DNA of 64,000 nt from positions 124,001 through 188,000 of the forward strand of contig NZ_JAIVLK010000002.1 in assembly GCF_020524585.1 (NCBI RefSeq), given 5' to 3'. The stretch is from Celeribacter naphthalenivorans. GTDB taxonomy: Bacteria > Pseudomonadota > Alphaproteobacteria > Rhodobacterales > Rhodobacteraceae. The position numbers and the translations under genes are program-made. Position 1 is the stretch's first letter. Each line of letters opens with the position of its first letter. Positions 5,262-36,423 of the stretch are shown in pieces. A model generated the notes under the pieces. That model saw only the letters and a program-made list of their open reading frames with translations, did not search any database and had not been told where the DNA came from.

Positions 5262-5268
5262 CATGTTG

Positions 5269-5296: not shown

Positions 5297-5345
5297 AATG
5301 TGTATTTAAAGAGCCGAATTTCAAACGCGTAAACCACGGATCGTT

Positions 5346-20394: not shown

Positions 20395-21993
20395 ATGGCG
20401 AAAAATGATCAGGATAAGCCGGTACAGCGCCCTGTAGATGAGGCCGCGCACCCTTTTCCTGTGGGCGCATCCCAACAAGAACGTATGAATCAGAAAGCCG
20501 GCCTGAACGGTGCGGCAGCCACCGCTATTGGTATGGGCTTGGCCTTGCAGGCGGGAATGTCAGAGGGGCTCAGCGCCTTTGCTGGCACGCCTCAAGAGGC
20601 GGTCGCCGAACAGGATGGGTCGGAAGACATCGTCCAGATTGCTCAAGCTGAAACAGACGCGCCGGAGGACGGCGAACTCAATGAAGAATTGCCTGATGTC
20701 GGTGCGGATGAGGGTGCCGACGATGTGTTGGGTGAATTTGACGTTGCTGTGTCTGGAGCCGTTGCCGCAGCGGGGCGGACCGCACAGACATCCGATGCAG
20801 GTGCGGCAAATGCGGCGGCAGTCGAGATTTTGGCGGAGGCCGATGAAGCAACGGCTGCACGCTTGGGGGGCGATTCCAATGATCCTCCCAAGGCTGATTT
20901 TTTCGACGGCGATGACGATGACGGCGGTCTGCTCGGGGATGTTCTCGATCCCATCATTGGGGATGATGGTCTTGTCGATGCGCTCCTAGACGCGCTGTTG
21001 GGCGAAGGTGGAATCCTCGATACGCTCCTTGGGGATGAGAGCCTTGTCGCTACGCTGCTCGACACTTTGATCGGTGAAGATGGCTTGCTCGATCTTGACG
21101 CTTTGGAGGCGCTTCTTGGCCCTGATGGGCTTTTGGGGAGTGCGCTGACGGAGTTGCTCGGAGATGAGTCTCTGTTGGCCGATTTGCTCGGCGAAGACGG
21201 TGTGATCGATGATCTCATGGATGCGCTGGTCGGCGAAGATGGTGTGTTGAGCAGCATCCTTGACCCGATTTTGGGGGACGGGGTGCTCGACGGCGTGTTG
21301 GGCGACGATGGAATCATTTCGGACGTTGTCGATGACCTGTTTGGCGAGGGCGGCCTTTTGGACGATCTGGTCGGCGATTTGCCGATCATCGGAGATCTCG
21401 TCGGCGATGGCGGCCTGCTCAGCGGGTTGCTTGGTCTGGGCGGCGGATCTGATGCGACGGATGAGGCAGATGGTGTCAGTGGTGAGGAAGAAGGTGATTT
21501 CCTCGATACGCTGATCGGCCTCGATTCGTCCGCTGGGGATGTCGGAGATGTTCTCGGCGAGGTGACGGACACAATTCTGGATGGCGTCGATGACGTGCTG
21601 ACGGGCCTGTTGGGCGATGAGGATGTCTTTGACATCGACGTTCCAGAGGTGGCTCTGGGCGGGTTCGACGATCTGTTTGCCGGTCTTGTGGGCGAGGACA
21701 GCCTGACCGGATCGTTGGCCGATCAAGGGCTCTTGGCGGGCGATGTCGGCCTGCCGCTGGATGGTGAAATCGATAGCCTGCTGAGTGAAATCCTCGGCCC
21801 CTCGAGCTCGGATGTCATGGCGGGCGGCGATGCTCTGGATGCGATTCTGGGTGATGTGGTCGAAGACAGCGGCGAGCTCATTGGCGGCTTGCTCGGTGAG
21901 ACTGGCGATTTGGCTGGGGCACTTGTTGATACGGTCGGTGTCGAGGATACGCTCCTTGATGGATTGTTCTCGCATGATGATGCCGCACAGTAA
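20395..21993 (+). CDS. acidic Leu/Gly/Asp repeat protein 1 (probable type I-exported surface protein)
   Basis: The 532-residue protein has a polar N-terminus, a hydrophobic patch near residues 41-55 (AAATAIGMGLALQAGM), an acidic Ala-rich region, and from about residue 170 irregular repeats of the type LLGDDGLLDxLLG. There is no Sec signal peptide and no classical RTX nonapeptide. Being acidic, low-complexity and next to a TolC/ABC/HlyD operon, it is probably an exported adhesin or matrix protein. Unlike the other two repeat proteins it has no BapA-prefix-like start. The ATG at 20395 has GGAG 11 bases upstream. The opposite strand shows a long proline-rich frame that is only a shadow. Confidence 0.7.
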   Translation: MAKNDQDKPVQRPVDEAAHPFPVGASQQERMNQKAGLNGAAATAIGMGLALQAGMSEGLSAFAGTPQEAVAEQDGSEDIVQIAQAETDAPEDGELNEELPDVGADEGADDVLGEFDVAVSGAVAAAGRTAQTSDAGAANAAAVEILAEADEATAARLGGDSNDPPKADFFDGDDDDGGLLGDVLDPIIGDDGLVDALLDALLGEGGILDTLLGDESLVATLLDTLIGEDGLLDLDALEALLGPDGLLGSALTELLGDESLLADLLGEDGVIDDLMDALVGEDGVLSSILDPILGDGVLDGVLGDDGIISDVVDDLFGEGGLLDDLVGDLPIIGDLVGDGGLLSGLLGLGGGSDATDEADGVSGEEEGDFLDTLIGLDSSAGDVGDVLGEVTDTILDGVDDVLTGLLGDEDVFDIDVPEVALGGFDDLFAGLVGEDSLTGSLADQGLLAGDVGLPLDGEIDSLLSEILGPSSSDVMAGGDALDAILGDVVEDSGELIGGLLGETGDLAGALVDTVGVEDTLLDGLFSHDDAAQ

Positions 21994-22023
21994 TGTGTAA
22001 ACTAGGGTTGAAATTTCCACCCC

Positions 22024-22038
22024 AATACTTGATGTATT
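22024..22038. promoter_or_regulatory. AATAC-N5-GTATT palindrome upstream of the export operon
   Basis: A perfect 5-5-5 inverted repeat between repeat protein 1 and the TolC gene, related to the TAC-N4-GTA elements elsewhere in the island. Confidence 0.35.
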
Positions 22039-22046
22039 AAATATAT

Positions 22047-22085
22047 ACCTTTAGGTGGTAAAAGGCTTAATGTTTCACCTTTAGG
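22047..22085. repeat. direct repeat of ACCTTTAGG spaced by exactly 30 bp
   Basis: ACCTTTAGG occurs at 22047-22055 and 22077-22085. Each copy lies within a small inverted repeat (ACC-TTTA-GGT and CACC-TTTAG-GGTG). The 30-bp spacing is close to three helical turns, as expected for cooperating protein sites. It lies 190 bp before the TolC start. Confidence 0.4.
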
Positions 22086-22276
22086 GTGCATCATGAGAAG
22101 GCCGTATCCGCTTTTGTGGATCCGGCTACGTCAAACGTTTGTTCTGGGGGGTCGATCGCTCTTTTGCAGGGGGGAATCGATAGCGATGATATGATGTTAA
22201 GAACTTTTGTAGCGATGCGGAGACCGACCCTAATTCTGGGTTCACTTCCTATCTCCACGGCTGTGAGTACTCTCAG

Positions 22277-23587
22277 ATGAGGCGGGAAAGCAGGAGACCT
22301 TTGCCAGCCACACGCACGCTCGGGCGGTCCCTTGGGAAACGCGTCCGGAAGGGCCTCATTGCATCCGCTTGTGTTCTGACAGTTTTCTCAGCACCTGCCG
22401 CATGGGCGCAGATGTCGTTACAGGAAGCGGTCTTGGTTGCTTCGGTGAACGATCCTGGCGTCGAAGCGTTGCGGCAAGAAGTTGCGATGAAAACCGTCGA
22501 TATTCAGGCGGCGCGCGATGCCTATTTCCCGTCCATCAGCCTCTCCGGCGACACAAGCACGACAGATAGTGATGGTCCGGGGCTTACCATGAGCGTCACG
22601 CAGGTGCTCTTCGATTGGGGCAAGACAAAAGCGGATATCGAAGAAGCCTCTCAGGTCCGCGTCCAGGCAGTGTCCGATCTGAAGGTTGCGATCGAAGATC
22701 TGACATTCGAGATTGCGGGCTTTTTTCTTGATGTAGAGGTTTTGGATCGCAAAATCGCCTATACGAGAGAGTATATGGCATTTGCGCGCCGTTTGGCGGA
22801 TCAGGCGCAGGATCGCGCCCGTGCGGGCGTCAGCGACAACAGCGAAGTGGCGCGTGCGCGCCTTGAGATTGCGCGTGCGGATGAGCAGATGTCGCAACTT
22901 TTGGCCAATCGCCAAATCGCCATGGCCCAACTGGAATTTCTCATTGGTCAGCCGGTGCCGAGCGTCAATAGGCCGCCCGTGATCGGCTTTTCGGAGCATT
23001 ACGGAAGTTCCGAAAAAATCCGCGCGGCCATTCGCATCGCGCCGGAATATGTCGCCGCCCGGGCCGCCGTGGCCGAAGCTGAGGCGGGGATCACCACCGC
23101 GAAAGCGCAGCGGTTTCCCACGATCAATCTTCAGGCGCAGGGGCGCGTTGATTTGAATGGCGGCGAGACACAAACCGCCTTGGGGATTTCCGCAGGTGTG
23201 GACCTGAATTCGCGTGGCTTTGGTCAGCGCCAGATTCAGATGGCCCAGCTTCAGGTCGAAGGCGCGAAAGCCTCGCTCAATGGGGTCGAACGTCAACTCA
23301 TGAACACGGCCAGCAGTGCGCTGGAACGGCTAAGCCTTTTGCGGCGGAGCGAAAGCTCCAAAGCGGTGCAGCTTCGCGAGTCGGAGAAAGTTCTGAGCAC
23401 CTACGAAGAGCAATTCGTCGCGGGACGACGTGAGATTCTCGATTTGCTGACGACGGGGCGTGATCTTTATGACGCTCAGCTTGATGAGATTGACACATAC
23501 GATGAACGCAAACGCACGGAATATGAATCGGCCAAGGAACTCGGTGTGCTTGGCACGATGCTCTCCGTCACCACGGTGATACAGTAA
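22277..23587 (+). CDS. TolC-family outer membrane channel of a type I secretion system
   Basis: The 436-residue protein has a signal peptide ending in APAAWAQ near residue 45 and two TolC-type repeats: long helices alternating with short beta segments (DAYFPSISLSGD with LFDWGKTKADIEEA, and RFPTINLQAQGRVD with SAGVDLNSRGFGQ). TolC proteins form the outer membrane tunnel for substrates pumped by an ABC transporter and adaptor. Both partners follow in the same operon. The start at 22277 gives a long n-region rich in Arg; a later start within the signal peptide is possible. Confidence 0.88.
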   Translation: MRRESRRPLPATRTLGRSLGKRVRKGLIASACVLTVFSAPAAWAQMSLQEAVLVASVNDPGVEALRQEVAMKTVDIQAARDAYFPSISLSGDTSTTDSDGPGLTMSVTQVLFDWGKTKADIEEASQVRVQAVSDLKVAIEDLTFEIAGFFLDVEVLDRKIAYTREYMAFARRLADQAQDRARAGVSDNSEVARARLEIARADEQMSQLLANRQIAMAQLEFLIGQPVPSVNRPPVIGFSEHYGSSEKIRAAIRIAPEYVAARAAVAEAEAGITTAKAQRFPTINLQAQGRVDLNGGETQTALGISAGVDLNSRGFGQRQIQMAQLQVEGAKASLNGVERQLMNTASSALERLSLLRRSESSKAVQLRESEKVLSTYEEQFVAGRREILDLLTTGRDLYDAQLDEIDTYDERKRTEYESAKELGVLGTMLSVTTVIQ

Positions 23588-23606
23588 TTAGGGAACGGAC
23601 GTTGGC

Positions 23607-25742
23607 ATGAAAGATACGGTATCGCACGATCCTCTTGTCCTGGGCCTTCTGGAACTTTGCCGGTTGCAGGGGGTGTCCAGCTCGGTCACCCAGTTGACCG
23701 AAGGATTGCCGCTTGAGGCGGGGAGCCATTTGACACCGGAGATGGCGCCTTTGGCGTTGCGACGTGCCAATATGAGCTGCCGGATCAGCCGCGAGGTGCT
23801 GGACACTCTGCCTGAACATAGTTTTCCGGTTCTGCTCTTTCTGAAAGACGGCCGCACGCTGATCCTCGAAGAGATGTCGGGCCAGCGGGCCAGAGTCGTT
23901 CTACCGGAGTCCGGCGGCGGTCGAGCCGTTTGGACCCTCGAAGAACTTGAGCGCCTACACGACGGTAAACTGTTGATTTCAAAGCCGCTCGACATCGTGT
24001 CCGACCGTCTGGATGGCAAAAAGGCGGGGCGTGGGCATTGGTTGCTTGGGCCGCTGTGGGAAAATTGGTGGATTTATAGCGACGTGATGATCGCGTCCTT
24101 TGCGGCCAATCTTCTGGCCGTCGCGACCGCGCTGTTTTCGATGCAGGTCTATGACCGCGTGGTGCCCAACAATGCGATGGACACCCTGTGGATTCTGGCC
24201 AGTGGTGTTGGCATCGCCATCGTGCTTGAGCTGGTCTTGCGCTTGATGCGCTCGTCTTTGGTCGATGTCTCTGGGCGCGATTTGGATTTGCGTCTTTCGG
24301 CACAGCTTTTTGACAAGGTGGCGAACATGCGCCTTGTCAACCAGCCCGCCTCACCGGGCGTCTTCGCAAACCAAGTCCGTGATTTCGGCGTTGTGCGTGA
24401 GTTCTTCACGTCGAGCACCGTGACGGCCATTTGCGATCTGCCTTTCGTGCTGATCTTCCTGGGCGTGATCTGGTTCATCGGTGGCTCTGTCGCGCTGGTG
24501 GTGTTGGCCGGGGTGATCCTGACGGTTTTGCCCGGCATTTTGATGCAAAAGAAACTGGCGCGGGCCTCAAAGGAAAACACCCGCGAGGCGGCTGCGCTCA
24601 ACGGGCTGTTGCTCGAAACCATCACCAATCTCGAAACGGTCAAAGCGGCGCGCGCCGAAGGTCGGCTTCAGCGGGCGCACGCACAGCTGACGGCGACGAT
24701 GGCGACGACGGCGGTGAAGACCCGCAATCTGACGACGTTGATGACGCAGCTGGTCAGCGCGGTTCAGCGCCTTGCATATGCGGGTGTGGTGATCGCTGGC
24801 GTCTATCTGATCAGCGCCGGTGATTTGACCGTCGGTAGCCTCATCGCCTGTACCTTGTTGTCGACCCGTGCGATGTCTCCGATGGGGCAGGTGGCCGGGC
24901 TTCTTGCCAAGTGGCAACATGTGCGCGCCGCGATGGAAGGTCTCGACGAGATCATGAAAATGCCGGTCGAGCGCCCCTCGGATCGGCATTTCGTGCGCGC
25001 AGAAATGATGCAGGGCGACTACCAGCTTCAGGACGTGGTGTTTCGCCACAATCCCGAGGCTCCGCCGGTCTTGGCCATCCCTGAATTGAAAATCGAAGCC
25101 GGGGAGCGGATTTCTCTTTTGGGTGGCAACGGGGCCGGGAAATCGACGCTGTTGCGTTTGCTGGCCGGTTTGACCGATCCGCAAACGGGGAGCGTCCTGT
25201 TGGACAATCTTGCCTTGAGCCAGATCGATCCGATCGACCGGCGGCGTCAGATCGGCTATCTGCCGCAGAGCGTCGCTTTGTTTCAGGGCACGCTGCGCGA
25301 GAATCTTTTGCTCGATCACGGGCTGCATTCCGACGAAGAGCTTTTGACCGCGCTTGATGCCGTGGGACTTGGCAAATTCGTGCGCCAACACGTGCGCGGG
25401 CTCGATCTTCAGATTCAAAGCAATGCCAATGTCTCCGGCGGTCAGCGACAGTCCATCGGTTTGGCGCGCGTCTTGTTGCAGGACCCGAAAGTGGTGCTGC
25501 TCGATGAACCGACCTCAGCGTTTGACCATGTGACCGAAGCCAAAGTGATCGCCTATCTCAAAGACTGGCTCAAAGGCCGCACGACGATCATTTCCACCCA
25601 CAAGCGCGAGTTGCTCGGTCTCACCGAGCGGGCGATTGTGTTGAAGGACGGGCGCGTGGCGCGGGATGGTGATCTGCTTCAGATCCTCAACACGGCGCGG
25701 GCCAATTCGGCGCAGTCCAAACCGGTGCAGGCCGTGAAATGA
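23607..25742 (+). CDS. type I secretion ABC transporter with C39-like N-terminal domain
   Basis: The 711-residue protein has an N-terminal C39-like domain (about 1-125), a transmembrane domain of about six helices (150-430) and an ATPase domain (480-700). Walker A is LLGGNGAGKST near 505, the signature is VSGGQRQSIGLARVL near 609 and Walker B VVLLDEPTSAFD. The peptidase domain lacks the catalytic cysteine (GVSSSVTQL where active enzymes have a Cys), so it is a docking domain of the HlyB/LapB kind and the substrate is not cut at a double-glycine site. Domain order matches adhesin exporters such as LapB. It overlaps the HlyD gene by 4 bp. Confidence 0.9.
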   Translation: MKDTVSHDPLVLGLLELCRLQGVSSSVTQLTEGLPLEAGSHLTPEMAPLALRRANMSCRISREVLDTLPEHSFPVLLFLKDGRTLILEEMSGQRARVVLPESGGGRAVWTLEELERLHDGKLLISKPLDIVSDRLDGKKAGRGHWLLGPLWENWWIYSDVMIASFAANLLAVATALFSMQVYDRVVPNNAMDTLWILASGVGIAIVLELVLRLMRSSLVDVSGRDLDLRLSAQLFDKVANMRLVNQPASPGVFANQVRDFGVVREFFTSSTVTAICDLPFVLIFLGVIWFIGGSVALVVLAGVILTVLPGILMQKKLARASKENTREAAALNGLLLETITNLETVKAARAEGRLQRAHAQLTATMATTAVKTRNLTTLMTQLVSAVQRLAYAGVVIAGVYLISAGDLTVGSLIACTLLSTRAMSPMGQVAGLLAKWQHVRAAMEGLDEIMKMPVERPSDRHFVRAEMMQGDYQLQDVVFRHNPEAPPVLAIPELKIEAGERISLLGGNGAGKSTLLRLLAGLTDPQTGSVLLDNLALSQIDPIDRRRQIGYLPQSVALFQGTLRENLLLDHGLHSDEELLTALDAVGLGKFVRQHVRGLDLQIQSNANVSGGQRQSIGLARVLLQDPKVVLLDEPTSAFDHVTEAKVIAYLKDWLKGRTTIISTHKRELLGLTERAIVLKDGRVARDGDLLQILNTARANSAQSKPVQAVK

Positions 25743-26911
25743 GCAACGCCGATCTGATCACAACGAGCCATATCGACGGCAGCTATCGCAGGCAGACCGT
25801 GAAACGCGCGCGCTTGGTGATCCAGACGGTCGTGCTGTCATTGGTCATCGCAATCGGCTGGGCCGCGCTGGCCCAGATCAACGAGATCACCCGCGGCGAC
25901 GGGCGCGTCGTGCCGCTGCGTCGTTTGCAATCCATCCAAAGTTTGGAGGGTGGCATCCTTGCGGAACTGCATGTGAGCGAGGGGGACATCGTTCAGGAAG
26001 GCCAGCTGATCGCCCGTCTCGACCCCACGCGGTCGCAAACGGCCTTCAACGCCACGCAGGCCGAGATCACCGCATTGGCGGCAGAGGTTCAACGTCTCGA
26101 GGCGGAGGTTCTGGAGCAGCCGCATCTGGAGTTTGGGCCAACGCCCAACGAGGCGGAAGCGACGGAATTGCGCCTCTTCGAAGCCCGCCGGACCAAGCTT
26201 GAAGCCTCACTGGCTTCGCTTGAAGAGGAACGTGGCACGATCGAGAGCCAGATCGAAATCACCAGCCCGCTGGCCGCGGGCGGGGCCGTCAGCCAGATCG
26301 ATCTTTTGCAGTTGCGTCAGCAAAAGGCGGAGCTTGACGGCAAGATCAACGAAGTGCGCAACGCCTATGTGCAGGACGCCTACAAGGATCTCGCGGCACG
26401 GCGCGCCAAACTGACGACCTTGCAGCAGGACCTGATCCAGAAGCAGGACGAATTCCAACGCACGGAAATCCGCTCGCCCGTGGCCGGACGTGTCAACAAC
26501 ATCGAAATCACCACACTGGGCGGCGTGGTGCAGCCCGGTGAGCCGATCATGGAGATCACGCCGACGGACGATCAGCTTTTGATCGAGACCAAGGTCAAGC
26601 CGCAAGACGTTGCCTTTGTCGCGCCGGGCATGCCCGCGAGCGTCAAGATCACGGCCTATGATTTTGCGACCTATGGCGATCTCGCCGGGGTGGTCACGCA
26701 GATTTCCGAGGACACGGTCGAAGAGGACACGCCGCAGGGTCCGCAAGATTTCTACCGCGTGATGGTGCGCACGGAGACCAGCTATCTCGAACGCTTTGGG
26801 GAGCAGTTCGCGATCCGGCCCGGCATGGTCGCGCAGGTCGATATCGAAAGCGGAGAGCGGTCGGTTCTGAGCTATCTGACCCGTCCGCTGATGCGCGCAA
26901 GATTGCGTTGA
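25739..26911 (+). CDS. HlyD-family periplasmic adaptor subunit
   Basis: This 390-residue membrane fusion protein has one membrane segment near residues 27-45 (VVLSLVIAIGWAALAQI), a lipoyl-like half (LQSIQSLEGGILAELHVSEG), a long coiled-coil hairpin (about 95-225), the returning lipoyl half (IRSPVAGRVNNIEITTLGG) and a C-terminal beta barrel. It links the ABC pump to TolC. The ATGA overlap with the pump gene indicates coupled translation. It is most like the LapC/HlyD type. Confidence 0.9.
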   Translation: MSNADLITTSHIDGSYRRQTVKRARLVIQTVVLSLVIAIGWAALAQINEITRGDGRVVPLRRLQSIQSLEGGILAELHVSEGDIVQEGQLIARLDPTRSQTAFNATQAEITALAAEVQRLEAEVLEQPHLEFGPTPNEAEATELRLFEARRTKLEASLASLEEERGTIESQIEITSPLAAGGAVSQIDLLQLRQQKAELDGKINEVRNAYVQDAYKDLAARRAKLTTLQQDLIQKQDEFQRTEIRSPVAGRVNNIEITTLGGVVQPGEPIMEITPTDDQLLIETKVKPQDVAFVAPGMPASVKITAYDFATYGDLAGVVTQISEDTVEEDTPQGPQDFYRVMVRTETSYLERFGEQFAIRPGMVAQVDIESGERSVLSYLTRPLMRARLR

Positions 26912-26987
26912 GCGTTTTGGATGTGGGGGCATCAGAAACGCAGACGCAGAGCTGAAACAATTGAAGAGATGTAAGAGAAAGACACCT

Positions 26988-28316
26988 ATGCTGCCGCCAC
27001 TCTTTGCTCCTGCCGTGCGACGCACGGCGGTTCTTTTTCCTGCTTTGGCACTGATTGCGACAGTGGGTACTGCGCAATCTGTTGGGACCCAATCGGTGCA
27101 AAGCTTTGCCCGCGTCGAAGTGCGCGGGGCGCAGTTCATCCCGGAACAGGACATTCAGATGACCTGCGGGGCGGTGCCGAATGTGCCCTATCTCTCGCTG
27201 GAACTGCGCGCCATCGAGGATTGTCTCATGTCCACGGGCGTGTTCGAGAGTGTTGTGCTTTATCCCGAGGGGGAGACGCTTGTCATCGAGGTGCAGGAGT
27301 TGAACACCCAGCCGGGGCGGATCGAGGGCAGCCTGAGTTACGCGTCGCAAGACGGGGTGATCGGTGGGCTGTTTTTTGAACGCTACAACCTTTTGCCCGA
27401 CACCTACGGCTCGGTGCGGCTGGAATATAATTCCGAAGTCAAACGGGCCATCGCGCGTCTCTATCATGTCGATGTCATCGGCGACGACATTGATTTGGGC
27501 TTTCGCACGGGGTGGGAGGAGATCTCCTACGACGACCGCTCTTTCTCGCGCGAGGCGGCTCAGATCGAAGCCTATCTGGCCTGGACACTCACGACGAGGA
27601 CGCGTCTGGAGGCGGGTCTGGGATACCGTGATTACCGGCTTTTCGATGTGGCGCCAGACGCCAGTGCGCTTTTGCTGGCGGAAGAGACCGACAGCATCGC
27701 GGCGCCCTATGTGCGACTGGGCCTCAATCACAGCTCTTTTGAGGATGGCGAACGTGGCTGGGGCACCTGGGAATACAATCTCGGCATGGACCAGTATTTC
27801 TGGAACCTCGGCACGGATGACGAATTGTCCGATTTCCGCTTTGAAACCCGCTCCTATGTGCCGCTTGGGGCACAGTCTCGCATGTTGATCTCTCTCGAGG
27901 CGGGCACGGTTTCGGGGCAACAGGGCAATGCCACACGGGTTCTGGACCGCTTTGCGCCCGGCGCCGACATGTTTCGCGGCTTTGCGCCGCGCGGCGTTGG
28001 GCCGCGTGACAACGGTGAAGGGCTTGGTGGCAACAAGTTTGCGGTGTCTTCCGTCGAGTTCCAGCACAATTTCGAAGCCCTCGTCGAGGCGCCCGTGGTG
28101 GGAGGCGTGTTCTGGCAAACGGGCGCGGCTTGGGGCTTGGACGATACGCAGGGTGGGGCGATCGACGACGATTACCACCAGCGCAGTTCCGTGGGGCTGT
28201 CGTTGTCCTTTGAGGTGGGAACAAGCCCCATTTCTCTCTACATCGCAAAGCCGATCGAGAAAGAGGACGGCGATGAAGAGCAGGTTTTTGGTCTGAGCTT
28301 AAGCACACGTTTTTAG
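26988..28316 (+). CDS. small Omp85/BamA-like outer membrane protein in the type I secretion operon
   Basis: The 442-residue protein has a hydrophobic signal sequence ending near TVGTAQS, one POTRA-like domain (VEVRGAQFIPEQDI through LVIEVQEL), and a C-terminal beta barrel of alternating residues that ends in phenylalanine (VFGLSLSTRF), the usual outer-membrane signal. RGFAPRGVGPRDNGEGLGG resembles the region before the last strands in BamA, TamA and FhaC. The ATG at 26988 follows AAGAGAAAGA; the frame also opens at a TTG at 26961. Its place after TolC, ABC and HlyD is unusual. It may help the exported protein cross or anchor in the outer membrane; this is inference. Confidence 0.75.
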   Translation: MLPPLFAPAVRRTAVLFPALALIATVGTAQSVGTQSVQSFARVEVRGAQFIPEQDIQMTCGAVPNVPYLSLELRAIEDCLMSTGVFESVVLYPEGETLVIEVQELNTQPGRIEGSLSYASQDGVIGGLFFERYNLLPDTYGSVRLEYNSEVKRAIARLYHVDVIGDDIDLGFRTGWEEISYDDRSFSREAAQIEAYLAWTLTTRTRLEAGLGYRDYRLFDVAPDASALLLAEETDSIAAPYVRLGLNHSSFEDGERGWGTWEYNLGMDQYFWNLGTDDELSDFRFETRSYVPLGAQSRMLISLEAGTVSGQQGNATRVLDRFAPGADMFRGFAPRGVGPRDNGEGLGGNKFAVSSVEFQHNFEALVEAPVVGGVFWQTGAAWGLDDTQGGAIDDDYHQRSSVGLSLSFEVGTSPISLYIAKPIEKEDGDEEQVFGLSLSTRF

Positions 28317-28362
28317 GCGTTTTTGACATCGGTTCGTCGGTGTCATGTCTGGAAATTTGATG

Positions 28363-28397: not shown

Positions 28398-28427
28398 TAT
28401 GCAATTCCTCGAGATTGATTTTGTACT

Positions 28428-28460
28428 ACATACTAAAGATTATTTTTTAAAAATAAGTAT
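28428..28460. promoter_or_regulatory. ACATACTAAAG element in an A/T-rich promoter region
   Basis: ACATACTAAAGAT begins at 28428 and an AGTAT half-site ends at 28460, giving widely spaced ATACT/AGTAT arms around an A/T core. The element matches ACATACTTTTG at 32409 and ACATACTTAAG at 34458. Confidence 0.4.
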
Positions 28461-28581
28461 AGGTATAAATATCCATTCGTGCTATCTCATGTCTCAAGAC
28501 GGCGCAAGGACCTCAGGGTTTAGGGGGCGGCGCGATTCGAGATTTCGGGAGTTGGTCCCGGTTAGAGTGTTTGGTGATTTC

Positions 28582-28812: not shown

Positions 28813-28857
28813 ATATAAGACGCCGAAAGTGCGTCTGGGGATGACGGGGGCTCACGC

Positions 28858-29286
28858 ATGCTACAGCAAACTTTAAAACCGGAAAATGCCGTCGCAGTTT
28901 CAGCCGGGTCTGCGCATTTGGTGATCAATGTGATTGCCTTCACCGATTGGGACGCAATCCCCATGGATATGTCTCAAATCAGGCAAGGATTTCAGATGTC
29001 CTTGCTCCACAGCGACAATGCGCACAATGCGCTGAGCCATCTACATGGTGGCGTCTGGAAACCAGATGTTCTTGTCGTGGATGAGGATTTTTTTGGTGCG
29101 CCGGAGGCCGCAGCAGATGCCTGCTTGCAAATCCGACGCACCTATCCCGATATTCGCATTGTCGCGCTTGAAAGCGAGATGTGGGAAGGGGAGTCCGTTC
29201 TGTCTTCTCTCGGAATCTGTCACGCCATTTTGCCCGCGAAAGCCTGCGGGCAAACGGTTCTGCGATCCTTGCGTCAGCTACATTAA
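28858..29286 (+). CDS. receiver-like protein with incomplete phosphorylation site
   Basis: The 142-residue protein reads like a lone response-regulator receiver domain: an aspartate at the right place in PDVLVVDEDFFG, alternating strands and helices, IRIVAL for the fourth strand, and a lysine in AILPAKACG. The N-terminal acidic pair normally needed for magnesium is not clear (only HSDNAHNAL is near). There is no output domain. It lies between the export operon and the two-component genes and may act as a sink or adaptor in that pathway; this is inference. The ATG follows GGGGGCTCACGC, a weak ribosome site. Confidence 0.55.
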   Translation: MLQQTLKPENAVAVSAGSAHLVINVIAFTDWDAIPMDMSQIRQGFQMSLLHSDNAHNALSHLHGGVWKPDVLVVDEDFFGAPEAAADACLQIRRTYPDIRIVALESEMWEGESVLSSLGICHAILPAKACGQTVLRSLRQLH

Positions 29287-29329
29287 CGCGTTCTCTTTTT
29301 ATCTGAGGCAGGGAATAAAGAGAAACGCG
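29287..29329. terminator. hairpin between convergent genes
   Basis: A nearly perfect stem (29287-29302 with 29315-29329, one unpaired base) with a T-rich 5' arm and A-rich 3' arm sits between the receiver-like gene and the NarL-type regulator, and can end transcription from both sides. Confidence 0.6.
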
Positions 29330-29366
29330 GTGCAAGGGAGAGCGGTGCGGGCGTTTCGCAACAGGC

Positions 29367-30002
29367 TCAGATGTAGTTCCTGTCCTGCGCCACGATGACC
29401 GCTTGTGTCCGGTTGTTCGCGCCGAGTTTCGTGCAGATTGATTTCACATGCATCTTGACGGTGGCTTCAGCGAGGCTCAGACCCTGCGCGATTTCGCGGT
29501 TCGATTGCCCCTCTGCCAAATGCTCAAGCACTTGCATTTCTCTTTCCGAAAGCGGTGATTTCGTCGTGCCGCGTGATTTAAGGCGTTGCAGGTCAAGCAA
29601 CTCGACCGGCACATATCGTCCGCCCGCCGCCATAAAGCGGATTTCGTTGGCCAAATCTTTCAAAGACGCGGTCTTGAGGATGACGCCAGAGCTACCCATG
29701 GCGAGAATCTCGGTGACAACCTGAGCTGTCGGATCGCTGGTCAAAAGCCCGGTCGGTTTGCCTTGGTTTTTCTCAAGCGCTTTCCCCAGCCCCTCGACAC
29801 CGTTCATGCCCGGCATGTTCAAGTCGACCAAAACCAAATCATAAGGGCCATCGCGGTCGAGAATGTCGATGGCTACATTCAGATCGGGAGCCGTTGTTAC
29901 CTCGAATTCTGGGAGGTTGGAAAGAAAATGATCGAACATTTCCAAAACCATCGCGTGGTCGTCTGCAATCAGAATTCTCGTCTTAGAGGCGGTCGCCGTC
30001 AT
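29367..30002 (-). CDS. NarL/FixJ-family response regulator
   Basis: The 211-residue protein has a receiver (ILIADDHAMVLEMFD, phosphoacceptor in LVLVDLNMPGM, Lys in VILKTAS) and a LuxR-type helix-turn-helix (LSEREMQVLEHLAEGQSNREIA then ATVKMHVKSICTKLGANNRTQA). The ATG at 30002 follows AAGGAAAGCAG; the frame extends 15 codons further without support. It lies next to the hybrid kinase on the same strand and between the export operon and the repeat-protein genes, so it probably controls the island, perhaps through the TAC-N4-GTA elements. Confidence 0.88.
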   Translation of the reverse strand: MTATASKTRILIADDHAMVLEMFDHFLSNLPEFEVTTAPDLNVAIDILDRDGPYDLVLVDLNMPGMNGVEGLGKALEKNQGKPTGLLTSDPTAQVVTEILAMGSSGVILKTASLKDLANEIRFMAAGGRYVPVELLDLQRLKSRGTTKSPLSEREMQVLEHLAEGQSNREIAQGLSLAEATVKMHVKSICTKLGANNRTQAVIVAQDRNYI

Positions 30003-30198
30003 CTGCTTTCCTTCTTTTCCAAGCCTGTGCGGCCCAGTTGGTCTCACTGGTGAACTTCAATACGCAATGAAGCTCTATAGAGATCACTAAAATATTTTCA
30101 CCACTCTTTAACTGAGCAAATGCTCATTATGTTCCGGAATTCTGCACGAAATCCACATTTTGCAATCTATGGTTGTATTTGAGGTGGGGCAATATAGC

Positions 30199-32253
30199 TT
30201 ATGGTAGTTCAAAAATCGCTTTTTGAGTGCGCGCGAGGTCTTTTTCCAATTGTTTCTGACAGTCCTCTAAGGGGGCGCCAGCATCAAAAGCCTTTTCCAT
30301 ACACCGCAAGCAGGCTTCCAATGCGCCAAGTCCCGTGAGGCTACAGGCCCCTGTCGCCGCATGCAGCATGCGACCCGTATCGGGGCTAATGCCGTCTTTT
30401 TGCAGCTTGGACAACACTTGGCCCGCCTCGGCATGTGCGCGGGTCATGAAAGAGGTTGCGCCCTGATGGCCAAGTTGTGTCAGCAGTTCGTGCACAATCT
30501 CGTCTTTGAGCGGCGGAACCTCTGTCGCTTCCGGCTCAACGGCCTTGACCTCGTCCTGTGAGGCCGGCGGCGACAGCCTTTGCGACGTCCCTCTGGCGTC
30601 CTCCAAGACCGCGTGTAACGCCGCGCGCAACTGTGCCGGTCGAATGGGTTTCTCAAGCACCTTCGCAATACCGGCGGCGTCACAGGCCGAGAGCACGGCA
30701 TCCGCCACATGCGCCGTCAGAGCCACGATGGGGCCGTGCCAGTTGATGTCTTTTTGTTTGCGCACGCGTTGCGCGAATTCGACGCCGGACATGTAAGGGA
30801 GGGTCATGTCGGTCAGGATCAGATCGAGTTTGTCGGTAATGTCCGATTTCGTGAGCAAGGAAAGCGCTTCAAGGCCTGTTCCAGCCGGCCAGACATGGGC
30901 GCCTGCGGCGCGCAGGACATGGCAAATCCAGTCCCGGCTTGCGGGGCTGTCCTCGACCAGAATGATGGAGAACCCTTGCAAAGAGTTTTCTTCGGGCAGC
31001 GACTTGTTTGGCGTTTCGGAAAACAGGCCCGTCTGCTCTCCTTTTTCTAAAACCAGTGTCACCTCCATCACCGTGCCAATGACCGCGGCGTCCGTGTCGG
31101 TTGCCGTCTCACAGTCGCCTGTATAGCGATCGGAGAATTCAAGCGTGCCGCCGAGTTGTCGCAAGGCATGGGCGAGGACATTCAATCCCGCCGACGGGCG
31201 CTCGGATTGGGCGGTGGTGCTGTCTCGCGAGGATTCGATCTGCTTCGCGTCGGCCTGACCGAGCGCTTTCAAAAGGCGCGCTTTTTGATCCGGGGGCAGG
31301 CCGCCCCCCATGTCTTTGACCGTCAGAGTAAGTTTGAGCGAGGGCTCATCGGTTTCCGTTGTGGCGATGGGACGACAAGAGAGCCCGATTTCGACATCCT
31401 GCCCGCCGTATTTGGCAGAGTTGTCGATAATATTTTGAAAGAGTGCCCGCACAAAACGCACCGGCCCATGCACCCACACATCTTCATGTGGATCGAGCCA
31501 AAGTTTGAGATTCACATGACGGGCGCGCGCGATCGGAGAGATCATCATCATGAGGCTGCGCAATTCCTCGGTGATGTTGAATGTCTCGTCCGGACGCAGG
31601 CCGCTGACGCTTTGCTCACCGCGAATGACACCAAGCACGTTGCTGATATGCTCCAGCGCCAACTCGGAGGTTTTCTTGAGCTGATTGCGGGCCTGTTGGT
31701 TTTGGGCCATGTCGTTAGTGGCGGCGGTGTCCAGAACATTCTCCGCCGTTGCCAGGAGAGACTGGATCGGCGTACGCAGGTCATGCGCGACGCGCATGAG
31801 CGTGGCGGCACGTGAGCGGTTGCGCAGCCAAGCGGCCTCGTGATCATTTTCTGAAAGTCGCAAAAGAAAGCCGTCGCCCGCCCCAAGAGAGAGATGGACG
31901 ACTTCGCCCTCCAGCTCGGTTGCGCCAAGCGTGAGTGAGGTGGCGACACTGGTGGCGCGATTCGCCTGTTTGCACAGGGCTTTCCAGTCGAGTTTGTCTT
32001 GCAGATCCCCCTGATCAAGCTGCAGACGCTGTGCGGGAGCGTTGGCCAGAAGGATGCTTCCGGTCTCGGTGGCAAGTAAGGAAGGGCGCCGGTCCGTCGC
32101 GATGAGACGCGCAATGGTTTGAATGATCGGTCGCATCGCTGCGTTGTTCTGAGCGGGCGATGCATAGGGGTCAGACGTCATGTTTAACCATACCTGTGTT
32201 TCAGTCCTCGACGGAGTTTCCGTGCTGTCTGCGTCAGTTCTTTGCTTGGCCAT
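30199..32253 (-). CDS. hybrid histidine kinase with receiver and Hpt-like domain
   Basis: The order is a short PAS-like N-terminus, histidine box RVAHDLRTPIQSLLATAE, HATPase (NIIDNSAKYGG, DMGGGLPPDQ), receiver (ILVEDSPASRDW, LILTDMTLPYMSG, EKPIRPAQL) and a C-terminal Hpt-like helical bundle with LHAATGACSLTG. No membrane segment is seen, so the kinase is probably cytoplasmic and senses an internal signal or a partner. The likely output is the NarL-type regulator 196 bp downstream. The start is uncertain: ATG codons at 32253 and 32181 both lack good ribosome sites; 32253 is used here. Confidence 0.82.
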   Translation of the reverse strand: MAKQRTDADSTETPSRTETQVWLNMTSDPYASPAQNNAAMRPIIQTIARLIATDRRPSLLATETGSILLANAPAQRLQLDQGDLQDKLDWKALCKQANRATSVATSLTLGATELEGEVVHLSLGAGDGFLLRLSENDHEAAWLRNRSRAATLMRVAHDLRTPIQSLLATAENVLDTAATNDMAQNQQARNQLKKTSELALEHISNVLGVIRGEQSVSGLRPDETFNITEELRSLMMMISPIARARHVNLKLWLDPHEDVWVHGPVRFVRALFQNIIDNSAKYGGQDVEIGLSCRPIATTETDEPSLKLTLTVKDMGGGLPPDQKARLLKALGQADAKQIESSRDSTTAQSERPSAGLNVLAHALRQLGGTLEFSDRYTGDCETATDTDAAVIGTVMEVTLVLEKGEQTGLFSETPNKSLPEENSLQGFSIILVEDSPASRDWICHVLRAAGAHVWPAGTGLEALSLLTKSDITDKLDLILTDMTLPYMSGVEFAQRVRKQKDINWHGPIVALTAHVADAVLSACDAAGIAKVLEKPIRPAQLRAALHAVLEDARGTSQRLSPPASQDEVKAVEPEATEVPPLKDEIVHELLTQLGHQGATSFMTRAHAEAGQVLSKLQKDGISPDTGRMLHAATGACSLTGLGALEACLRCMEKAFDAGAPLEDCQKQLEKDLARTQKAIFELP

Positions 32254-32408
32254 GTTCAACTTAGCCGTGTGCAATCTGTCACGCGCTGAGTGTCGCTGAG
32301 TGATTGGCGCAAAGGAAGGGGAGATGCAACTTTTCGGCAATGTTTCTCGCTGCGTATTGTTCTAACTCTGATCAATTTGATGCTCTAAATATTATTATTG
32401 ATGTAACT

Positions 32409-32419
32409 ACATACTTTTG
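32409..32419. promoter_or_regulatory. ACATACTTTTG element upstream of repeat protein 2
   Basis: The 11-mer lies 71 bp before the start of repeat protein 2 in an A/T-rich stretch, between divergent genes (hybrid kinase and repeat protein). A TTACGTAA palindrome follows at 32444-32451. Confidence 0.4.
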
Positions 32420-32490
32420 ATAACTAAGGGGAGGGGTTATTGCTTACGTAACGATTCTGGCCGCAGGGGCCACATGAAAGGACTAGGGAA

Positions 32491-34284
32491 ATGGCGATGA
32501 GTGGATTTGTTGTTGGCGACGCAGTGGATGTTCAGATTCATCTGAATAAGGACAGCGTGAGCCGTTTTGTGAAATCCGGAAACGACCTTGTTATTGAACA
32601 GGTCAATGGTGACACGCTCACCCTCAGCAATTTTTATATCGAAACCGCCAGTGGCGAGGCGCATCGCCTGCTCTATGCAGATGGCACGTTCAGCGGTGTC
32701 GAAGGCGTCTGGGACGATGAAGACGCGGTCGCAGGGCTTGGTCAGGGGTTCTCCTTGGATGAAGCCGGCGCTGGTCTGGCCGCCTTGGCGGGGCTTGGTG
32801 CCGCAGTGCTTTTGGATGACGACGACGACAATTCAGACGATGATGACGATGATACGGTCGACCCGGATCCCGAGCCCGAGCCCGAGCCGGAGCCCGAGCC
32901 GGACCAATCGACGGGCATTCTCGACTCTGTTGTGGATGACGACGGTCTTCTGGGGTCTTTGACCGGCAACGAAGGTGGCCTTGGCGCGATCACAGGATCC
33001 GAAGGCCTGCTGGGCAGCCTGATCGGCAATGACGGCCTTTTGGGTGCCGTGACCGGCGAAGAAGGTCTCTTGGGTGGTCTGCTGGGCGCAGGTCTGCTCG
33101 GTGACGGCCCGAGCTCCGATGATCCTTTGTCCAGCGTGACCGATGCGCTGTTGGGCGAGGGCTCGCTTGTCGGTGGCTTGCTCGGCAGCACCGGTCTCAC
33201 CGCCGGTTTGCTGGACGCTGACGGTCTTGTCGGTAGCCTTCTGACCGAAGACGGTCTCGTGGGCGGATTGCTGGGCGATGAGGGGCTCGTCGGTGGGCTT
33301 TTGGCGGAGGACGGTCTCGTGGGCGGTCTTCTCGGCGGCGATAGCCTTGTCGGTGGCCTGCTTGGCAACGAAGGTCTGGTGGGCGGTCTCACGGATGGTC
33401 TTCTCGGCGGCGAAGGCGGCTTGCTCGACGGTCTTCCGCTGGTCGGTGGTTTGACCGATGGGTTGCTGGGCGGCGAAGGCGGCCTGTTGGACGGCCTTCC
33501 GATTGTGGGCGGTCTCACGGATGGTCTTCTCGGCGGCGAAGATGGGCTGCTTGGCGGCCTGACCGGCGACGACGGACTTCTGGGCGGCTTGCTCGGCGGG
33601 GAAGGGGGACTTCTGGATGGTCTCCCGCTCGTGGGTGATCTGACCGACGGACTTCTCGGCGGCGAAGATGGACTCCTCGGCGGTTTGACCGGCGACGACG
33701 GTCTGCTTGGCGGCCTGCTCGGCGGCGAGGGCGGTCTTCTCGACGGGCTTCCGCTGGTTGGTGATCTGACCGATGGTCTCTTGGGCGGCGAAGATGGCCT
33801 GCTGGGCGGCTTGACGGATGGTGTCCTAGGCGGTGAGGGTGCCGGGCTTCTGGATCCTGTGCTGGCTGATGGGGGGCTGCTGGGCGATGTGACTGGCAAT
33901 AGCGGGCTGCTCGGTGATGTGACTGGCAACGATGGCCTGCTTGGCGGCGTCGTTGGGGATGAGGGGCTCGTGACAGAACTGACGGGTCTGACCTTGCTGA
34001 CCGATGGGGGCGAGGCCTCTGACGGTCTGCTCGGTGGCCTGACCGATGGCTTGCTGGACGGCATCATCGGCGAAGACGGTCTTCTGGGCGGTCTGACCGG
34101 TGGTCTGCTCGGTGGTGAGGATGGCCTGCTTGATGGGGTGATCGGCGACGAAGGTCTGGTCGGCGGTCTGCTCAGCGACGGTGGTCTCGTTGGCGGGCTT
34201 ACGGACGGTTTGCTCGGTGGAGAGGATGGTCTTCTGGGCGATTTGACCGGTGGTCTGCTCGGTGGTGACGATTCTCTGATCTGA
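32491..34284 (+). CDS. acidic repeat protein 2 with BapA-prefix-like N-terminus
   Basis: The 597-residue protein begins with a domain like the prefix of BapA-type biofilm adhesins (SRFVKSGNDLVIEQVNGDTLTLSNFY), then a short hydrophobic stretch (AGLAALAGLGAAVLL), an acidic linker with Asp runs and a Pro-Glu repeat, and about 450 residues of LLG-rich repeats. The clearest unit is 42 residues (GGEGGLLDGLPLVGDLTDGL followed by [22 protein letters not shown]). No RTX nonapeptide is seen. It is probably secreted by the nearby type I system and acts at the cell surface. AAGGA precedes the ATG. Ends in GGDDSLI. Confidence 0.8.
   Translation: MAMSGFVVGDAVDVQIHLNKDSVSRFVKSGNDLVIEQVNGDTLTLSNFYIETASGEAHRLLYADGTFSGVEGVWDDEDAVAGLGQGFSLDEAGAGLAALAGLGAAVLLDDDDDNSDDDDDDTVDPDPEPEPEPEPEPDQSTGILDSVVDDDGLLGSLTGNEGGLGAITGSEGLLGSLIGNDGLLGAVTGEEGLLGGLLGAGLLGDGPSSDDPLSSVTDALLGEGSLVGGLLGSTGLTAGLLDADGLVGSLLTEDGLVGGLLGDEGLVGGLLAEDGLVGGLLGGDSLVGGLLGNEGLVGGLTDGLLGGEGGLLDGLPLVGGLTDGLLGGEGGLLDGLPIVGGLTDGLLGGEDGLLGGLTGDDGLLGGLLGGEGGLLDGLPLVGDLTDGLLGGEDGLLGGLTGDDGLLGGLLGGEGGLLDGLPLVGDLTDGLLGGEDGLLGGLTDGVLGGEGAGLLDPVLADGGLLGDVTGNSGLLGDVTGNDGLLGGVVGDEGLVTELTGLTLLTDGGEASDGLLGGLTDGLLDGIIGEDGLLGGLTGGLLGGEDGLLDGVIGDEGLVGGLLSDGGLVGGLTDGLLGGEDGLLGDLTGGLLGGDDSLI
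33406..33832 (+). repeat. 42-residue (126-bp) tandem repeats inside repeat protein 2
   Basis: Successive copies encode identical or nearly identical residues while third codon positions differ throughout (for example LLDGLPLV is encoded differently in each copy). This is a coding repeat and not a CRISPR array or satellite. Confidence 0.75.
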
Positions 34285-34304
34285 TCGATCTCGGAAACGC
34301 GATG

Positions 34305-34335
34305 AAGCGCCCTGCCTTTGGCGGGGCGTTTTTCT
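34305..34335 (+). terminator. intrinsic terminator after repeat protein 2
   Basis: A 12-bp stem (34305-34316 with 34320-34331, with G-T pairs) with a 3-base loop ends in a T-run. It lies 20 bp after the stop codon. Confidence 0.82.
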
Positions 34336-34437
34336 GTTTTGATGGCCCTTTGTGAGCACGAGGCCGGGGGGAAATGCGCCTGAGTTGTGCGTGTCGTCGG
34401 ATTTTCTCCGAATATGATGCGAGAAAACTTGACTAGG

Positions 34438-34470
34438 CATACTAAAATATCTCAGATACATACTTAAGTC
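34438..34470. promoter_or_regulatory. two CATACT elements upstream of repeat protein 3
   Basis: CATACTAAAAT at 34438 and ACATACTTAAGTC at 34458 are spaced 21 bp apart (two helical turns), about 75-100 bp before the repeat protein 3 start. A GTATGAACTTACGTATG segment follows at 34475-34491. Confidence 0.45.
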
Positions 34471-34536
34471 TTTCGTATGAACTTACGTATGTGTTCGTTA
34501 CTGTGCGAAGGGTGTAATTGGGTATTGGAGTGAAAC

Positions 34537-36423
34537 ATGACTATGAAAACAATTCAGGCGTCCCCGAATGAGGTGCGCGTTCCGCTGAACATCGACCAGA
34601 CCGGGCTTGAGACATACAGCCGGTCGGGCAATGATCTGATCATTGATCTTGGCAATGGGGATATGATCACCGTTGCTGGCTATTACGTCCCGGCTGCAGA
34701 CGGGTCGCTTCATAGCATTGTCTATAGCAACGATATGGTGATTGAAGGCGATCCCGCGGCGGCTGGCCTTGGTGAAAGCATGCCCGAGGAAGCCGTGGCG
34801 GCGCTCGGTCTTGGCGCCCTCGGTCTCGCAGCACTCGCCGGTGGCGGTGGAGGCGGCGGTGATGACAGCGACGCCGATGCGGACGCCGACGCGGATGCTG
34901 ACGCCGACGCGGATGCTGACGCCGACGCGGATGCAGATGCGGACGCCGACGCGGATGCTGACGCCGATGCAGATGCTGACGCCGATGCAGATGCTGACGC
35001 CGATGCAGATGCAGATGCTGACGCCGATGCTGATGCTGATGCGGACGCCGATGCCGACGCGGATGCTGATGCTGACGCCGACGCGGATGCAGATGCTGAC
35101 GCCGATGCTGACGCGGATGCCGATGCAGATGCTGACGCCGATGCTGACGCGGATGCCGATGCAGATGCTGACGCCGACGCTGATGCGGACGCCGATGCCG
35201 ACGCGGATGCGGATGCCGATGCTGACGCCGACGCGGATGCTGATGCGGACGCTGATGCAGACGCCGATGCGGATGTTCAGGGCTTCCTCGATCCGCTGAT
35301 CGGTGCTGGCGGTCTGCTGGCCGGTCTCACGGACAACGGTGCGCTGTTGGGCGATATCACGGGGTCTGATGGCCTTCTGGGTGATCTCGTCGGGGAAGAC
35401 GGCGTGCTTGGGGGGCTTGGAAACGACCTTCTGGGGCAACCGCTTCTGGGCGACGGGGTCCAAGGTGACGATATTGGCCTGCTTGACGGTCTCGTCTCCG
35501 ATACCGGCTTGCTCGGCGATCTGACCGGAAACTCCGGCCTGCTGGGCGACGTCACGGGCTCCGGTGGCCTTCTGGGCGATCTGTTGACGAACGATGGCGT
35601 GCTTGGTGACATCACGGGCTCTGAAGGGCTTGTCGGCGATTTGATCGGCACCGGCCTGCTCGGCGAAGGCGCAACCGACGGCAGTTCGGATGGCGGCCTC
35701 CTTGGCGGTGATCTCCTCGGCGGTTTGACGGACGGTCTGCTCGGCGGTCTGACAGATGGTTTGCTCGGCGGCGAAGGCGATCTGCTTGGTGGTCTGACGG
35801 ACGGCCTCTTGGGCGGTGACCTTCTCGGTGGTCTGACCGATGGTCTGCTTGGCGGCGAGGGCGACTTGCTTGGTGGCCTGACAGACGGCCTCTTGGGCGG
35901 TGATCTGCTCGGTGGTTTGACCGATGGGCTGCTTGGCGGCGAGGGCGACCTGCTTGGTGGTCTGACAGACGGCCTTTTGGGCGGTGACCTTCTCGGTGGT
36001 TTGACCGACGGTCTGCTCGGTGGCGAAGGCGATCTGCTTGGTGGCGTGACGGACGGCCTCTTGGGCGATGATCTCCTTGGCGGGCTGACCGATGGTCTCC
36101 TTGGCGGCGAAGGTGGGCTTTTGTCTGGGCTGACGGGCAGTGACGCTGGCTTGCTCGACGATGTGCTCGCAGATGGTGGCCTGCTCGGCGATGTGACCGG
36201 CAACAGTGGCCTCTTGGGCGACATCACCGGCAATGACGGAGTGCTTGGCGACGTGATCGGTGACGCAGGACTTGTTGCCGATGCGACAGGGCTTGTCCTG
36301 GTGACGGATGGTGACCCGGCGGCGTCCGGTGGGCTCCTTGGTGGGCTGACGGATGGTTTGCTTGGCGGTGATCTGTTGGGCGACGACCTGCTGGGCGGTG
36401 TCACCGACATCCTGCCGATCTAA
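34537..36423 (+). CDS. acidic repeat protein 3 with BapA-prefix-like N-terminus and Asp-Ala tract
   Basis: The 628-residue protein has a BapA-prefix-like domain ([32 protein letters not shown]), a hydrophobic Ala/Leu segment near residue 90, a Gly run, then a pure alternating Asp-Ala tract of 135 residues (112-246), and about 380 residues of LLG repeats. A 28-residue unit ([28 protein letters not shown]) is repeated about four times. The layout matches repeat protein 2 and suggests a paralog made by duplication. It is probably exported by the same type I system; the Asp-Ala tract would be a stiff, highly charged spacer. The final residues are GGVTDILPI. Function is inferred from context only. 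Confidence 0.8.
34870..35274 (+). repeat. Asp-Ala dipeptide tract, 135 codons
   Basis: The codons alternate GAC/GAT with GCC/GCG/GCT/GCA without interruption for 405 bp (67 Asp-Ala pairs plus a final Asp). Codon choice varies irregularly, so the DNA is not a simple 6-bp satellite although the protein is perfectly regular. Confidence 0.9.
35705..36120 (+). repeat. 28-residue (84-bp) tandem repeats inside repeat protein 3
   Basis: Four tandem copies of a 28-residue unit follow each other. The protein sequence is nearly unchanged (one Gly to Asp and one Leu to Val change in the last copy) while synonymous sites differ. Confidence 0.75.

What the first reader, a model, noticed from the sequence alone, without database searches (positions are those of the whole stretch)
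20395..36423. Candidate adhesin-export island with its own Omp85-like protein and two-component control
Seen: three acidic LLG-repeat proteins, TolC, ABC with inactive C39-like domain, HlyD, an Omp85-like barrel, NarL-type regulator, hybrid kinase and a lone receiver-like protein, all in 16 kb. Known: BapA/LapA-type adhesins leave through type I systems with C39-like ABC proteins. Inference: repeats without RTX motifs plus a dedicated Omp85-like member make this a distinct variant, possibly undescribed.
Basis: partly seen in the sequence, partly recalled or inferred. Interest (0 to 1): 0.8.

Follow-up and report, generated by a model that had tools for sequence, protein, structure and literature searches.

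The report
Repeat-adhesin exporter with dedicated BamA-like protein
A marine-type bacterium carries a patchily distributed gene island that appears to build its own exporter, with an unusual extra outer-membrane helper protein and its own genetic switch, to put long acidic repeat proteins on the cell surface.

Summary
Window 20395-36423 (Celeribacter-like Rhodobacteraceae) holds LLG1-TolC-ABC-HlyD-Omp85-REC, then RR and HK on the other strand, then LLG2-LLG3. It is conserved: a pattern-led scan of 84,980 species genomes gave 34 relatives, HlyD directly preceding Omp85 in 30. In 246 family genomes Omp85, its ABC clade and LLG2 occur in the same 6; in 20 genus genomes Omp85 and LLG2 occur in the same 9. 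The Omp85 models as one POTRA plus 16 strands, nearest BamA. LLG2 and LLG3 carry the BapA prefix domain, an exchangeable low-complexity stalk and LLG repeats. No LapG. New: a TACATACTTWAG element enriched in substrate promoters; its strict form also marks BapA_N genes on other contigs, one running into LLG repeats. Best reading: a dedicated type I secretion system for BapA-type surface proteins with its own BamA-like assembly factor and regulon, a new variant of a known kind. Export, adhesion, the Omp85 role and RR binding are inferred.

The parts
20395..21993 (+). LLG1: acidic repeat protein, no BapA_N; conserved (A/S)A(S/T)AIGMGL segment and C-terminal region
   Evidence: BLAST group of LLG1 present in 30 of 43 stretches, a few members being other LLG proteins
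22277..23587 (+). TolC-family outer membrane channel
   Evidence: PF02321 2.7e-45
23607..25742 (+). LssB-type T1SS ABC permease/ATPase whose N-domain is not recognised as C39
   Evidence: TIGR03375 812.5 bits, above cut-off; no C39 Pfam match
25739..26911 (+). HlyD-type periplasmic adaptor
   Evidence: TIGR01843 311.5 bits, above cut-off
26961..28316 (+). BamA-like Omp85 with one POTRA and a 16-strand barrel (translation may start at the ATG at 26988)
   Evidence: PF01103; model pLDDT 82.1; Foldseek and VIA-align to BamA
28427..28433 (.). TACATAC/GTATGTA element between Omp85 and REC, 431 bp before REC
28858..29286 (+). Lone receiver-like protein (REC142)
   Evidence: alignment of 8 sequences with DEDFFG and LPAK motifs; no Pfam match
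29367..30047 (-). NarL/LuxR-type response regulator
   Evidence: Response_reg 5.4e-17, GerE 3.4e-21
30199..32340 (-). Hybrid histidine kinase; no transmembrane segment by hydropathy; His-containing C-terminal segment (HPt-like, my reading)
32408..32414 (+). TACATAC element, 83 bp before LLG2
32491..34284 (+). LLG2: BapA_N, (D/E-P)n stalk, DGLLGxLTGx repeats, C-terminus DDSLI
   Evidence: PF22783 1.4e-7, NF033677 36.3 bits
34457..34463 (+). TACATAC element (within ATACATACTTAAG), 80 bp before LLG3
34537..36423 (+). LLG3: BapA_N, (Asp-Ala)n stalk with an unbroken run of 67, LLG repeats
   Evidence: PF22783 6e-7

Best explanation
The island encodes a dedicated type I secretion system for BapA-type surface repeat proteins. 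ABC, HlyD and TolC export LLG1-3 and LLG paralogues encoded elsewhere, using a C-terminal acidic-hydrophobic signal. The BapA_N domain and the glycine-rich hydrophobic stretch behind it hold LLG2 and LLG3 at the cell, an extended acidic stalk carries the LLG repeat region outward, and the protein acts in attachment or biofilm. The one-POTRA Omp85 is a private BamA-like assembly factor that installs or partners the cognate TolC or the emerging protein at the outer membrane. The phosphorelay (HK, RR) switches the substrate genes through the TACATACTTWAG element. Shown by computation: gene content, synteny, co-occurrence, architecture, fold model, distribution of the element. Inferred: export, retention, adhesion, the Omp85 role, RR binding.
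For: ABC and HlyD above curated T1SS cut-offs. HlyD directly followed by Omp85 in 30 of 34 loci. Same 6 of 246 genomes for Omp85, ABC clade and LLG2; same 9 of 20 genus genomes for Omp85 and LLG2. Distances of Omp85 correlate with TolC 0.87, HlyD 0.85, ABC 0.82 over 26 loci (permutation p 0.0005 over 28 loci). BamA-like fold with one POTRA, while the genome also has a 794-aa BamA frame. C-terminal acidic-hydrophobic ending in 48 of 70 LLG proteins against 1800 of 7000 internal 6-mers (the motif was chosen after seeing the ends). Stalk exchange with conserved ends. Element core: 82 sites in 32 loci against 7.2 expected, 65 of 82 in substrate-side promoter zones that are 6.4% of bases. Strict element: 16 hits in 19 genus genomes, 15 of them in island-bearing genomes, each of the 15 before an LLG, BapA_N or REC gene.
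Against: No experiment. G292 (behind L057) has exporter and Omp85 but no LLG2-like match. In G085 Omp85 and ABC lie about 17 kb apart. In four distant loci Tad secretin, CpaD and TadE genes stand between HlyD and Omp85, so its partner may be a wider apparatus. The window's LLG1 promoter has only a one-mismatch core; 24 of 56 LLG2/3-class and 6 of 15 LLG1 promoters lack the exact core. No site before TolC, ABC, HlyD, Omp85 or sBapN genes is what chance predicts there (0.08-0.36 expected), so it shows absence of enrichment only. The strict pattern's raw count is no higher than its reversed control (16 against 17; the places of the control hits were not examined); only its placement tells. TIGR01844 is below its cut-off. 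No housekeeping control for the correlated distances. No LLG2 structure was obtained.
Confidence: 0.6

Rival explanations
1. The Omp85 is itself the outer-membrane exit for the LLG proteins, in the manner of two-partner secretion, and TolC serves another substrate.
For: A 16-strand Omp85 barrel encoded beside secreted-looking proteins.
Against: A TolC gene stands directly before the ABC gene in 41 of 43 stretches; no TpsB-type POTRA_2 Pfam match; the rows listed by structure are BamA and TamA; LLG2 and LLG3 start with BapA_N, without a signal-peptide-like start (my reading of the sequence).
Confidence: 0.12
2. The LLG proteins are exported but form a polyanionic, ion-binding surface or matrix coat rather than acting as adhesins.
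For: Net charges of -109 to -145 and Asp-Ala or Asp-Pro-Thr stalks. PMC5588039 (passages) itself speculates on calcium mineral nucleation for Asp-Ala BapA.
Against: The BapA prefix domain is annotated in biofilm-associated proteins, and one orthologue has Big_9/cadherin-like domains as stalk.
Confidence: 0.3
3. The Omp85 belongs to a wider Tad-like surface apparatus and only travels with the exporter.
For: Tad secretin, CpaD and TadE genes lie between HlyD and Omp85 in L057, L059, L060 and L086, and Tad genes stand beside Omp85 in L058 without the cognate exporter nearby; a Tad cluster with CpaF follows the island on pSMR1-2.
Against: HlyD directly precedes Omp85 in 30 of 34 loci, and Tad genes were labelled in only 6 of 43 stretches; the stretches are short and the rest of each genome was not searched for Tad genes.
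Confidence: 0.2
4. The TACATACTTWAG element is read by a regulator other than the island RR.
For: No binding test. Two loci without RR or HK in the stretch (L053, L063) still carry the core.
Against: RR and HK are in 34 and 33 of 43 stretches, the element lies in the HK-LLG2 divergent promoter, and only 1 strict hit was found in 10 island-less genus genomes.
Confidence: 0.3

Closest known systems
BapA/BapBCD of Paracoccus denitrificans (PMC5588039, passages seen)
   Same: T1SS-dependent acidic surface protein, 891 Asp-Ala dipeptides, encoded immediately beside its exporter; needed for biofilm.
   Different: Its Table 1 gene numbers (2413 ABC, 2412 fusion protein, 2411 outer membrane protein) with bapA upstream imply another gene order, and 'omp85' does not occur in the text; one large adhesin, not several LLG proteins. 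Sequences were not compared here.
Adhesins with the BapA prefix-like domain: BapA, SiiEA, Blp2 (PF22783; NF033677, NF047714, NF040520)
   Same: N-terminal prefix domain.
   Different: LLG decapeptides and low-complexity stalks in the window proteins; Ig/cadherin-type domains only in the L024/L032 orthologue of LLG3.
LapA-LapG type T1SS adhesins (recalled)
   Same: LssB/LapB-type ABC with an N-domain that is not a C39 peptidase.
   Different: LapG (PF06035) found in 0 of 20 genus genomes; transcriptional two-component control is proposed instead.
BamA-like Omp85 subfamily (PMC4104836, passages seen)
   Same: 1-3 POTRA plus barrel, present in addition to BamA.
   Different: 'type i secretion' does not occur in that paper's main text.

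Membership tests
Type I secretion system, LssB type | ABC of TIGR03375 and HlyD of TIGR01843 above cut-off | tested here: met
   812.5 of 693.1 bits; 311.5 of 208.65 bits
Type I secretion system, LssB type | TolC-family outer membrane protein in the same gene cluster | tested here: met
   PF02321 above cut-off; the narrower TIGR01844 is at 145.7 bits, below its 225.15 cut-off
Type I secretion system, LssB type | Substrates leave the cell through it | not testable with these tools
   needs deletion mutants
BapA-type adhesin | BapA prefix domain | tested here: met
   LLG2 and LLG3 above the PF22783 cut-off; NF033677 cut-off met by LLG2, not by LLG3; LLG1 no match
BapA-type adhesin | Ig-like (Big) repeats | tested here: not met
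   none in LLG1-3 of the window; present in the L024 orthologue of LLG3
LapA/LapG-controlled adhesin | LapG protease (PF06035) in the genome | tested here: not met
   0 of 20 genus genomes; Caulobacter control rings
RTX protein | Arrays of the nonapeptide GGxGxDxUx | tested here: not met
   one isolated match in LLG3, no Pfam RTX match
BamA-like Omp85 | 1-3 POTRA and a 16-strand barrel, in addition to BamA | tested here: met
TpsB (two-partner secretion) | POTRA_2-type domains | tested here: inconclusive
   no POTRA_2 match at E up to 0.1; TpsB not among the 50 rows listed
P. denitrificans BapABCD | Sequence homology to BapA and BapBCD | not tested
   that locus was not retrieved; only the paper's description was compared

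The most novel reading that the evidence does not exclude
A four-component type I secretion system in which a private one-POTRA BamA-like protein is an obligate subunit that folds, threads or anchors a family of exchangeable-stalk LLG surface proteins, with a promoter element marking the substrate set across the genome.
Probability: 0.35. Interest if true: 0.75.

Novelty: new variant of a known kind. Interest (0 to 1): 0.6.

Why it matters
Type I secretion is usually described with three envelope parts (recalled). A conserved, co-inherited BamA-like fourth gene would show that some of these systems bring their own outer-membrane assembly factor. The exchangeable stalks and the promoter element make substrate sets findable by DNA search, which already turned up BapA_N genes on other contigs. 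The Omp85 is on 9 plasmid records, so the system may bear on how marine Rhodobacteraceae gain the ability to attach.

Tried and rejected
Integrative element at tRNA-Ser: the longest word of the tRNA found again downstream in the window is 12 bases, so no attachment repeat. LapG control: rejected. Defence system: no PADLOC match for the 4 proteins given. Literature: 9 searches of the open-access library listed no paper that by title or abstract describes an Omp85 in a type I adhesin operon; only passages of PMC5588039 and PMC4104836 were read, the rest were listings. The first distance correlations for RR picked paralogues and were redone, which left out 2 of 28 loci (L049, L050). Rows dropped before counts: 5 near-duplicates named, 5, 2 of 34, 4, 79 LLG frames became 73 (running off an end) and 70 (same C-terminus). 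The 43 stretches include related strains and one locus cut in two (L082, L083). A first promoter scan of 30 loci mishandled minus-strand loci; redid 25 of the 36 rows, leaving out the giant G004 frame and rows without a locus. An earlier count gave 14 of 16 and 'all 9'; recounted these are 13 of 15 and 8 of 9. LLG2 structure: not obtained. The viral fold library was not searched.
Full report
Observation. LLG2 and LLG3 carry the BapA prefix domain; LLG1 does not. Net charges run from -109 to -145. LLG2 repeats with a best lag of 10 residues, consensus DGLLGxLTGx.

Conservation. Besides the own genome, orthologues of the Omp85 (frames of about 450-545 residues, 53-68% identity) occur in 9 of 60 relatives, distinct from BamA frames of about 800 residues. 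Ten loci of 15-20 kb from these nine genomes show the order LLG1-TolC-ABC-HlyD-Omp85-REC, RR and HK reversed, LLG2-LLG3 as far as the contigs reach: L022, L025 and L029 end within the LLG2/LLG3 part, REC was not matched in L028, and LLG2 of L023 is split over two frames. A pattern-led scan of genomes of 84,980 species returned 34 loci, among them Celeribacter, Roseovarius, Sulfitobacter, Pseudosulfitobacter, Shimia, Salipiger, Tritonibacter and Paracoccus. HlyD directly precedes Omp85 in 30 of 34. Over 43 stretches, some redundant, I labelled Omp85 in 42, ABC 42, HlyD 42, TolC 41, RR 34, HK 33, the LLG1 group 30, a short BapA_N protein before TolC 27, a glycosyltransferase after Omp85 19 and REC 16. 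In a FastTree of four joined proteins, drawn without support values, the window's clade carries REC where most other loci carry the glycosyltransferase, and Celeribacter species fall in separate places, which fits horizontal transfer. Nine plasmid records carry the Omp85; of three read, pSMR1-2 has the whole island, while in Sulfitobacter dubius toxin-antitoxin and insertion-sequence genes follow Omp85.

Co-occurrence. In 246 family genomes, nearly one per genus, Omp85 (E up to 1e-50), the ABC clade (1e-200) and LLG2 (1e-10) are each found in 6, the same 6. By my arithmetic this has a chance of about 3.5e-12 if genomes were independent, which they are not; the thresholds were mine. In 20 genus genomes Omp85 and LLG2 are in the same 9. 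In 101 Paracoccus genomes the ABC clade is in 3. Against: of four distant genomes, one (G292, behind L057) has no LLG2-like match, and in G085 Omp85 and ABC lie about 17 kb apart. Protein distances of Omp85 correlate with TolC 0.87, HlyD 0.85 and ABC 0.82 over 26 loci; there is no housekeeping control.

The repeat proteins. In 34 proteins with BapA_N and LLG repeats the stalks are (Asp-Ala)n with runs of 28-75, (Asp-Pro-Thr)n-like, (Asp/Glu-Pro)n, (Gly-Pro-Thr)n and others; one orthologue has Big_9/cadherin-like domains. In two records named Pseudosulfitobacter pseudonitzschiae, LLG3 has a DPT stalk (L038) or a DA stalk (L084) between conserved ends. The C-terminus ends acidic-then-hydrophobic in 48 of 70 proteins against 1800 of 7000 internal hexamers, a motif chosen after seeing the ends; such ends are known from type I substrates (recalled).

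Regulon. TACATAC/GTATGTA lies within 300 bp upstream of LLG2/3-class genes in 32 of 56 (1.3 expected), LLG1 9 of 15 (0.4), HK 15 of 30 (0.5), REC 5 of 14 (0.2) and glycosyltransferase 6 of 16 (0.1); RR 1 of 34; TolC, ABC, HlyD, Omp85 and the short BapA_N gene 0 of 36, 42, 37, 37 and 21, where chance also predicts about none, so they merely show no enrichment. In 32 loci there are 82 sites against 7.2 expected, 65 of them in promoter zones of LLG, REC, glycosyltransferase and HK genes that are 6.4% of bases. The 64-kb window has three sites: 28427, 32408 and 34457. The strict form WTACATACTWWDG has 16 hits in 19 of the 20 genus genomes: 15 in the nine with the island (none in G011; two of the 15 are the two island copies of G014), 1 in ten without it; the reversed control has 17, whose places I did not examine. 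All 15 lie before an LLG, BapA_N or REC gene, the farthest about 530 bp away. Four lie before BapA_N genes on other contigs: the window genome's own C17, with a collagen-type stalk; G015 C38; G014 C6, which runs from a collagen-like stalk into LLG repeats; and G010 C6. C17, C38 and G010 C6 genes run off their contig ends, so their LLG part is unseen. Within one mismatch of TACATACTT, 13 of 15 island-type BapA_N genes have a site, against 1 of 8 genes of a separate Big-domain BapA_N adhesin. That the island RR reads the element is inference.

Mechanism and verdict. I commit to a dedicated type I secretion system for BapA-type surface proteins with a private BamA-like assembly factor and transcriptional control in place of LapG release (LapG 0 of 20). 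The nearest described system I know is P. denitrificans BapA with 891 Asp-Ala dipeptides (passages). It works like that system; membership was not tested by sequence. A new variant of a known kind, interest 0.6.

Noticed in passing
L057, L058, L059, L060, L086: Tad-pilus outer-membrane genes (secretin, CpaD, TadE, TadG, not all labelled in each) lie beside Omp85 or between it and the T1SS genes; no CpaF or TadB/C was recognised in those stretches by the clustering used.
   Followed up: partly
L038:18000-19814 and L084:25629-27137: LLG3 proteins in two records named P. pseudonitzschiae have different stalks, (DPT)n and (DA)n, of similar length between conserved ends.
   Followed up: yes
   Followed up: partly
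window 23607-25742, residues 18 and 58: Two cysteines of the ABC N-terminal domain are invariant in 40 of 40 aligned orthologues.
   Followed up: no
G004:C1:3426170-3430846: A 9315-residue open frame with repeated BapA_N-like matches.
   Followed up: no
G000:C11:227952-228122 and relatives: A separate BapA_N adhesin frame of about 1050 residues, with Big domains in the one scanned, in 8 of 9 genus genomes, with and without the island.
   Followed up: partly
window 37053-40340: PGA_cap (CapA-like) 1095-aa protein right after the island; matched near the island also in L043, and by a short stretch in L023.
   Followed up: no
L029 and L030 (G014:C10 and C48): Two closely similar island copies on two contigs of one genome: real duplication or assembly effect.
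   Followed up: no
NZ_CP085168.1 and NZ_CP085169.1: The Omp85 is matched with equal scores on two plasmids of Sulfitobacter sp. DSM 110093.
   Followed up: no
L023 (G018), about 4445-5572: LLG2 appears split over two reading frames in this genome.
   Followed up: no
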